From contig NZ_FOLV01000018.1 of the NCBI RefSeq assembly GCF_900112415.1, positions 1-64,000 of the forward strand: 64,000 nucleotides of DNA. The letters run 5' to 3'. The DNA comes from Bacillus sp. 491mf. GTDB taxonomy: Bacteria > Bacillota > Bacilli > Bacillales > Bacillaceae_G. This document shows, piece by piece, positions 59,639 to 59,991 of the stretch. A model generated the notes under the pieces. It saw only the letters and a program-made list of their open reading frames with translations. It was not told the DNA's origin and made no database searches. Within the stretch, counting starts at the first letter, position 1, and every line of letters starts with the position of its first letter. A program made the position numbers and the translations under genes.

Positions 59639-59991
59639 CTATCTAAATCGATTTATTACGTACATAATAAAAGATAATACAATACTTATCACAATACACG
59701 TAATGACGGGAAAATAAAAGGTAACATTCCCCTTTTTCACAAAAATATCGCCTGGAAGCCTACCTATAAAGTGAAACTTCCATTAGTGGGGGAGTTTTTC
59801 ATCCCCCACTGATGGTTAGTTGAACCAATCGGGCTTTTACGGGCAGTTATCCCCCACCTATCTTCTTCGATTCTCTCTCAATCTTGAGGTGGGGGTCTTA
59901 CTGCCCGTTAATGCGGGATAAACTTCCAAGCTAATCCAACAACAACGAGAAGAATACCGTCTGTAATGAGCAGCTTTGGCATATCTGTCAT
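59639..59991 (-). pseudogene. DUF2905 family gene interrupted by a TTTAT-bounded repeat
   Basis: The gene starts with ATG at 59991, overlapping the ruvB stop (ATGA), and reads MTDMPKLLITDGILLVVVGL then AWKF before running into the insertion, where it stops after IPH. After the repeat the frame resumes as IGRLPGDIFVKKGNVTFYFP and ends in a membrane segment at the stop (TAG at 59639). Joining the halves at the TTTAT gives an uninterrupted KFIGRLPGDIF, a DUF2905 protein of about 66 residues. The insertion adds 152 bases, so it also shifts the frame. DUF2905 proteins have two membrane segments and unknown function. Confidence 0.92.
59771..59917 (+). repeat. TTTAT-bounded repeat (bcr-like), simple form, inserted in the DUF2905 gene
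   Basis: A 147 bp segment bordered by ATAAA (59766-59770) and ATAAA (59918-59922), the exact 5 bp target duplication. It has a perfect CCCCCACTGA-type hairpin (GTGGGGGAGTTTTTCATCCCCCAC) on the left. A second hairpin is based on CCCCACCT and AGGTGGGG with GGGCAGT/ACTGCCC. It has no open frame of its own. It resembles the bcr1 repeat of the B. cereus group, though I assign that name tentatively. Confidence 0.88.

What the first reader, a model, noticed from the sequence alone, without database searches (positions are those of the whole stretch)
59639..59991. A TTTAT-bounded repeat has split the DUF2905 gene between ruvB and queA
Reading across 59771-59917 gives a protein that stops after KFIPH. 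Removing the 147 bp element and one copy of the ATAAA/TTTAT restores KFIGRLPGDIF in one frame, with a normal stop at 59639. The exact 5 bp duplication shows insertion by a transposition-like event, not a sequencing slip. The gene is a conserved part of the ruvAB-queA-tgt block in related species, so this is a natural knockout. The start of the gene overlaps the ruvB stop, so transcription reaching queA must pass the repeat.
Basis: seen in the sequence. Interest (0 to 1): 0.82.

Follow-up and report, generated by a model that had tools for sequence, protein, structure and literature searches.

The report
Mobile repeat breaks small membrane-protein gene
A known mobile repeat of Bacillus, about 150 bases long and called bcr1, sits inside a small membrane-protein gene and cuts it short; the event itself is ordinary, but the same repeat turns up in many other bacteria and its orientation follows DNA replication, which hints at how it jumps.

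Summary
A 147-bp element (59771-59917, read on the minus strand) bounded by TTTAT lies inside the DUF2905 gene between ruvB and queA. The N-terminal part stops after 27 codons (..AWKFIPH*); the C-terminal part (GRLPGDIF..NRFR*) is open in another frame down to the stop at 59639. The element fits the known B. cereus repeat bcr1, so this is a new copy of a known element, in a gene that 49 of 80 related ruvB-queA loci lack. (1) bcr1 is described in print as confined to the B. cereus group, but 60 of 397 genomes sampled from one order match it, and Ectobacillus panaciterrae carries it. (2) In five complete genomes 87 of 109 copies lie with the same strand on the leading strand, and 11 of 11 where both flanking genes run the other way. 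With no terminal inverted repeats, a TTTAT target and a hairpin near each end, this looks like single-strand transposition of the IS200/IS605 kind, so the TTTAT pair need not be a classical duplication. No partner transposase was found. No B. cereus-group genome turned up in my searches, so the spread of this insertion is unknown.

The parts
59766..59922 (-). bcr1 element with its two TTTAT ends (157 bp; 147 bp between them)
   Evidence: homologous copies
59918..59922 (-). left TTTAT, probably the target pentanucleotide (codons F-I of DUF2905)
   Evidence: TTTAT at the matching place in 9 of 50 related rows
59766..59770 (-). right TTTAT, either a duplicated target or the element's own terminus
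   Evidence: right end TTTAT in 71 of 75 full copies and 22 of 23
59839..59908 (-). left subterminal compound stem-loop of the element
   Evidence: fold; most of it kept in the 22-copy consensus
59780..59815 (-). right subterminal hairpin of the element
   Evidence: fold; kept in the 22-copy consensus with changes on both sides of several pairs
59908..59991 (-). truncated DUF2905 reading frame, 27 codons plus stop; its last codons and stop lie in the element
59639..59770 (-). detached C-terminal part of DUF2905, open to the stop at 59639; a GTG at 59740 is the start that the ORF listing gives
   Evidence: DNA match to relatives' DUF2905 genes in 18 of 19 loci
59988..60998 (-). ruvB
   Evidence: ORF; matches in relatives; gene name from the finding and recall
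58567..59619 (-). queA
   Evidence: ORF; relatives; gene name from the finding and recall

Best explanation
The element is a copy of bcr1, the non-coding mobile repeat described from the B. cereus group. It inserted 3' of a TTTAT that spans two codons of DUF2905, a small protein with two hydrophobic stretches, and truncated it to 27 codons (truncation shown by the sequence). Most likely it moved as single-stranded DNA: an HUH tyrosine transposase of the IS200/IS605 kind, supplied in trans, recognises the subterminal hairpins, excises the top strand at TTTAT and inserts it into a TTTAT exposed on the lagging-strand template at a replication fork (inferred). The lost gene is dispensable in many relatives, and transcription probably continues through the repeat into queA and tgt (inferred), so the insertion is most likely a tolerated passenger and not an adaptation.
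For: Sequence and frames. Fit to the published bcr1: literature size 147 (PMC2267715, table passage), TTTAT motif, average 39 copies per strain (PMC6542083 passages), complex secondary structure (PMC8725734 passage). Ends are not inverted repeats, and TTTAT is read in one direction at both. A stem near each end is kept in 22 copies (the window's and one from each of 21 genomes); 14 of 41 predicted pairs show changes on both sides that keep the pair. Strand: 87 of 109 distinct copies in five complete genomes have the top strand on the positive-GC-skew strand of their own 10-kb region, taken as the leading strand, so the top strand is the lagging-strand template; 33 of 39 where the flanking genes disagree, 11 of 11 where both oppose the leading strand (wider skew maps of two of the genomes). 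The window copy agrees: minus-strand element, GC skew -0.156. A natural site in G240, lacking the element, has a single TTTAT where G262 has the element. The IS200/IS605 criteria are from PMC7290912 passages. DUF2905 is missing from 49 of 80 related loci with ruvB and queA side by side.
Against: No transposase gene bracketed by bcr1-like ends: 0 of 91 Y1 or TnpB loci from 17 genomes. Two bcr1-carrying genomes showed no Y1 match at all (G316, G335). The bias is uneven: G389 12 of 20, G097 16 of 22, and 9 copies were left out for weak skew. In the IS605 paper that I use for criteria the elements themselves show no strand preference (10 of 22 on the leading strand, PMC7290912), so the bias is not universal. 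One copy has the same variant at both ends (TTTAC/TTTAC), as a true duplication would give. Left-end variants outnumber right-end ones (12 to 4 in 98 copies), but not decisively. The site in G240 cannot tell duplication from an element-borne TTTAT. The strand bias was measured outside the window's own group. Print suggests a site-specific-recombination-like mechanism for the bcr repeats (PMC6542083).
Confidence: 0.66

Rival explanations
1. bcr1 is an ordinary MITE moved by cut-and-paste, or by a site-specific recombination on duplex DNA, and the two TTTAT are a true 5-bp duplication.
For: Exact TTTAT at both ends here; single TTTAT in a natural site without the element; one copy with the same variant at both ends. 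Published texts call bcr1 MITE-like (PMC3446304, PMC3733652 passages) or suggest a site-specific-recombination-like mechanism (PMC6542083 passage).
Against: Ends are not inverted repeats; TTTAT and element keep one orientation; replication-strand bias; a variant at one end is not copied at the other in 16 of 17 variant copies, though later mutation could do that too.
Confidence: 0.22
2. The repeat was kept because it acts in the mRNA: its hairpins process or stabilise the ruvB-queA-tgt transcript, and loss of DUF2905 is a side effect.
For: Strong fold on the transcribed strand (z -7.3); bcr1-bcr3 often lie in UTRs or between operon genes (PMC3446304 passages); pairs kept by changes on both sides.
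Against: The same paper reports that only bcr3 correlated with decay rate. Structure is equally expected of a single-strand transposon end.
Confidence: 0.12
3. Movement through an RNA copy (retrotransposition), which can also favour the lagging-strand template (recalled).
For: Transcribed in part, structured, orientation bias.
Against: Exact TTTAT at both ends. A link to reverse transcriptases was not tested here; nothing specific supports it.
Confidence: 0.05
4. Assembly or sequencing artefact.
For: None found; the window's own genome was not held, so no reads or second assembly were seen.
Against: The element has the family's ends at both sides, and both flanks keep recognisable DUF2905 sequence.
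Confidence: 0.01

Closest known systems
bcr1 (Bacillus cereus repeat, group A of bcr1-bcr18)
   Same: Literature size 147 (PMC2267715 passage), TTTAT motif, high copy number (PMC6542083 passages), secondary structure, no coding capacity. The 2004 paper is not held; it and the 2007 and 2011 papers are known to me by title in reference lists and by recall.
   Different: This copy lies inside a gene, whereas the bcr families are described as intergenic (PMC3446304 passages). The family is said to be confined to the B. cereus group (PMC6542083 passage), which contradict.
PATE: ends-only derivative of IS200/IS605 elements
   Same: No terminal inverted repeats, insertion next to a pentanucleotide, hairpin near each end, lagging-strand orientation bias, no genes (criteria from PMC7290912 passages).
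   Different: No IS200/IS605 element with matching ends on both sides was found (0 of 91 loci). TnpB-only elements in G097 end in a hairpin similar to the inner left stem (CCCCCACCTCAAG..GATAGGTGGGGG), but their termini differ.
REP/RAYT systems
   Same: Short structured repeats; RAYT-like Y1 genes occur in many carriers. Close relatives of one from G009 (E <= 4e-46) are in 21 of 60 bcr1 genomes against 42 of 337 others (Fisher p 6e-5).
   Different: Longer, two stems, TTTAT and not GTAG ends. That strict cut-off was chosen after the list was seen; with the search's own cut-off the association vanishes (36 of 60 against 183 of 337, p 0.48), and G002, G097 and G316 carry bcr1 without a RAYT match. 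Shared ancestry was not corrected for.

Membership tests
bcr1 | 147 bp, non-coding, TTTAT motif | tested here: met
   literature size from PMC2267715, motif from PMC6542083
bcr1 | sequence match to the published bcr1 consensus | not tested
   The consensus was not in any passage that I saw; the name rests on size, motif, structure and recall
bcr1 | restricted to the B. cereus group | tested here: not met
   Matches in 60 of 397 genomes sampled from one order, in Ectobacillus panaciterrae and on a Pseudalkalibacillus plasmid. This tests the published range of the family, not whether this copy belongs to it
IS200/IS605-derived PATE | no terminal inverted repeats | tested here: met
   Left TTTATCCCGC.. 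and right ..TTTCACTTTAT are not inverted copies (seen)
IS200/IS605-derived PATE | insertion 3' of a fixed tetra/pentanucleotide in one orientation | tested here: met
   natural site without the element
IS200/IS605-derived PATE | hairpin near each end | tested here: met
   (predicted folds)
IS200/IS605-derived PATE | lagging-strand template bias | tested here: met
   87 of 109 copies in five genomes; weak in G389 (12 of 20). Not universal in the family (10 of 22 on the leading strand in PMC7290912)
IS200/IS605-derived PATE | no target duplication | tested here: inconclusive
   TTTAT at both ends; origin of the right copy not resolved
IS200/IS605-derived PATE | autonomous element with the same ends | tested here: inconclusive
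   0 of 91 Y1/TnpB loci in 17 genomes; end queries came from 10 copies, flanks were at most 1.5 kb and some cut by contig ends, and not every listed match was fetched
DUF2905 (PF11146) | one uninterrupted domain | tested here: not met
   Gene split into two frames; pieces compared apart; the window pieces were not themselves scanned against Pfam

The most novel reading that the evidence does not exclude
bcr1 is not a B. cereus-group MITE but one lineage of a widespread Bacillales family of gene-less single-strand transposons of the IS200/IS605 kind, moved in trans by an HUH transposase into the lagging-strand template. The TTTAT pair is then a target plus an element-borne end, not a duplication.
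Probability: 0.6. Interest if true: 0.55.

Novelty: new member of a known kind. Interest (0 to 1): 0.38.

Why it matters
The gene break itself is a routine case of a repeat landing in a dispensable gene. The wider result would matter to people who study B. cereus repeats: it widens the host range of bcr1 well beyond what is printed in the papers that I saw, and it turns the question of how bcr1 moves into a specific test (single-strand cleavage at TTTAT, orientation by replication direction).

Tried and rejected
Own genome: not held. Rfam: no match at gathering cut-off in 57000-63000. Phages: no match. I first suspected that G009 was B. cytotoxicus from its size and copy number; its queA is only 74% identical to the window's at DNA level, so I dropped that. 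RAYT as mover: significant only with a strict cut-off set afterwards, and contradicted by carriers without it. IS200/IS605 and TnpB elements as movers: no shared termini on both sides; L148 and L411 hold a left and a right end near a Y1 match but not around it. Left/right TTTAT variation as proof of an element-borne right end: 12 against 4 variants, too few. A test of mobility with flanks of a G091 copy gave no clear empty site in G058 or G203. An earlier count gave 64 of 76 copies and 11 discordant; the correct figures are 64 of 75 and 10.

In the strand count I used 96 fetched regions around listed hits (20 G097, 19 G186, 17 G256, 20 G389, 20 G363), not all copies of these genomes; 9 elements with |GC skew| < 0.03 were left out; overlapping or repeated hits were merged; one element without a neighbour on one side is missing from the gene-context split. 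G316 was searched but not fetched by place. The 397-genome tally scored only the two best candidates of each genome, so it is a lower bound at E <= 1e-20.

Full report
What is there. On the minus strand the window reads ruvA (61633-60995), ruvB (60998-59988), a broken DUF2905 gene, queA (59619-58567) and tgt (58551-57412) (gene names from the finding and recall; ruvB and queA lie side by side in all 80 related loci; DUF2905 is PF11146). The DUF2905 start codon overlaps the ruvB stop. Its frame runs for 27 codons, MTDMPKLLITDGILLVVVGLAWKFIPH, and stops at 59910-59908, inside a 147-bp insert (59917-59771). Beyond the insert the rest of the protein, GRLPGDIFVKKGNVTFYFPVITCIVISIVLSFIMYVINRFR, is open in another frame down to the stop at 59639. 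A TTTAT lies at each end of the insert. I did not rejoin the halves; the intact order is seen in relatives, for example WKFIGKLPGDIVVKKE in Priestia taiwanensis (L003).

What the insert is. A survey table gives 147 as the literature size of Bcr1 (PMC2267715, passage), the same as here. TTTAT motif, copy number and structure also fit bcr1, a group A repeat of the B. cereus group (PMC6542083 and PMC8725734, passages). I could not compare it with the published consensus. Three further repeats in the window (23184-23463, 17215 onward, 50371-50603) share its ends but carry a longer interior; they are probably other group A repeats (recalled).

Is the gene important? All 19 genomes sampled from the family of Ectobacillus hold one DUF2905 match in an open frame. 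Among the 80 nearest queA loci, 31 have a DUF2905-like frame and 49 do not; the 49 include many Planococcus and Planomicrobium, with Sporosarcina, Lysinibacillus, Ureibacillus and Niallia, and in all 49 ruvB lies directly before queA (28 to 522 nt between the matches). The gene could lie elsewhere in those genomes; I did not look. So loss from this place has occurred in whole lineages, and a break here need not have a strong effect. The function of DUF2905 is unknown to me. The consensus scan found no terminator-like site on the minus strand; one stem with a T-run inside the element is on the other strand. Read-through into queA is therefore likely but untested.

The repeat is not confined to the B. 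cereus group. [quoted passage not shown] With the window copy as query, Ectobacillus panaciterrae (G002) has seven copies aligned over the full length, up to 87% identical. A Pseudalkalibacillus hwajinpoensis plasmid has a full-length copy at 80.7%. In the sample of the order 60 of 397 genomes match at E <= 1e-20; in the sample of the family 4 of 19 do at E <= 1e-10. Within G262 some copies are 97% identical to another, and likewise within G091, which points to recent movement. In G240 the place of one G262 copy is naturally without the element and holds a single TTTAT, although an unrelated stretch upstream also differs between the two.

How it moves. The ends are not inverted repeats. TTTAT is read in the same direction at both: 64 of 75 full copies in five genomes have it at both ends. 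Of the rest the left end alone deviates in 7, the right alone in 3, and both identically in 1. In 23 copies of G002 and G009 the left alone deviates in 5 and the right alone in 1. The alignment of the window copy with one copy from each of 21 genomes keeps a compound stem near the left end and a hairpin near the right end, with changes on both sides in 14 of 41 predicted pairs. Orientation follows replication: in five complete genomes 87 of 109 distinct copies have the top strand on the positive-GC-skew strand of their own 10-kb region, taken as the leading strand (p 2e-10). By genome: G186 20 of 21, G256 16 of 18, G363 23 of 28, G097 16 of 22, G389 12 of 20. Gene orientation does not explain it: 33 of 39 where the two neighbours disagree, 11 of 11 where both oppose the leading strand, 42 of 58 where both agree with it (wider skew maps for G256 and G186). 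Copies may share descent by duplication, so the p values are approximate. The window copy has the expected orientation (minus strand; skew -0.156); of the three longer repeats in the window one agrees and two do not. The named marks of IS200/IS605 elements are no inverted repeats, no duplication, insertion 3' of a tetra- or pentanucleotide, end hairpins, and a lagging-strand bias, which the same paper does not see in its own genome (PMC7290912, passages).

What is missing. A mover. I examined 91 loci with Y1 transposase or TnpB matches in 17 genomes for bcr1-like ends on both sides; none has them. Close relatives of a RAYT-type protein from G009 are enriched in bcr1 genomes (21 of 60 against 42 of 337, cut-off set afterwards), but with the search's cut-off they are not (36 of 60 against 183 of 337), and several carriers lack them. 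TnpB-only elements of G097 end in a hairpin of nearly the same sequence as bcr1's inner left stem, which may be kinship or convergence.

Print. I searched for bcr1 with IS200 (six papers) and bcr1 with Bacillus cereus and 'lagging strand' (none). Of the six I saw the bcr1 passages of five: PMC6542083, PMC8725734 and PMC3733652 (for PMC6542083 12 of 21 places were shown), and PMC4853749 and PMC8090892, which name bcr1 only in a reference; PMC6256058 I saw in the listing only. None of these passages states a strand bias or a single-strand mechanism; one suggests a site-specific-recombination-like mechanism. The library lacks most subscription papers, and I saw none of the 2004, 2007 and 2011 bcr papers, so priority cannot be claimed.

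Verdict. The insertion is real and disrupts the gene, but it is an ordinary event. The broader reading of bcr1 is more interesting than the finding itself and is testable.

Noticed in passing
window 23184-23463 (-), 17215 onward (+), 50371-50603 (+): Three longer repeats with bcr1-like ends and a similar interior (..TTGTCCAGCTCCAGCGGCTAGAATCTCCGG.. and variants), probably other group A repeats; the one at 23184 has TTTAC at its left end.
   Followed up: partly
G009:C29:292200-303815 (L135, L138, L141, L143): Four RAYT-like transposase genes, three of them head to tail within 2 kb just before a ComM-like gene (name recalled), one of them broken by a stop.
   Followed up: no
G097 loci L284-L287: TnpB-only elements end in the hairpin CCCCCACCTCAAG..GATAGGTGGGGG (one with changes), nearly the inner left stem of bcr1.
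   Followed up: partly
L411 499-553; G002:C45:8172-8220: Mini-elements of about 50 bp that consist of the bcr1 left and right ends only.
   Followed up: no
G091 matches at query 601-696 and 705-759: Many copies in G091 share the bcr1 ends with high identity but break between them, perhaps a second subfamily with a different middle.
   Followed up: no
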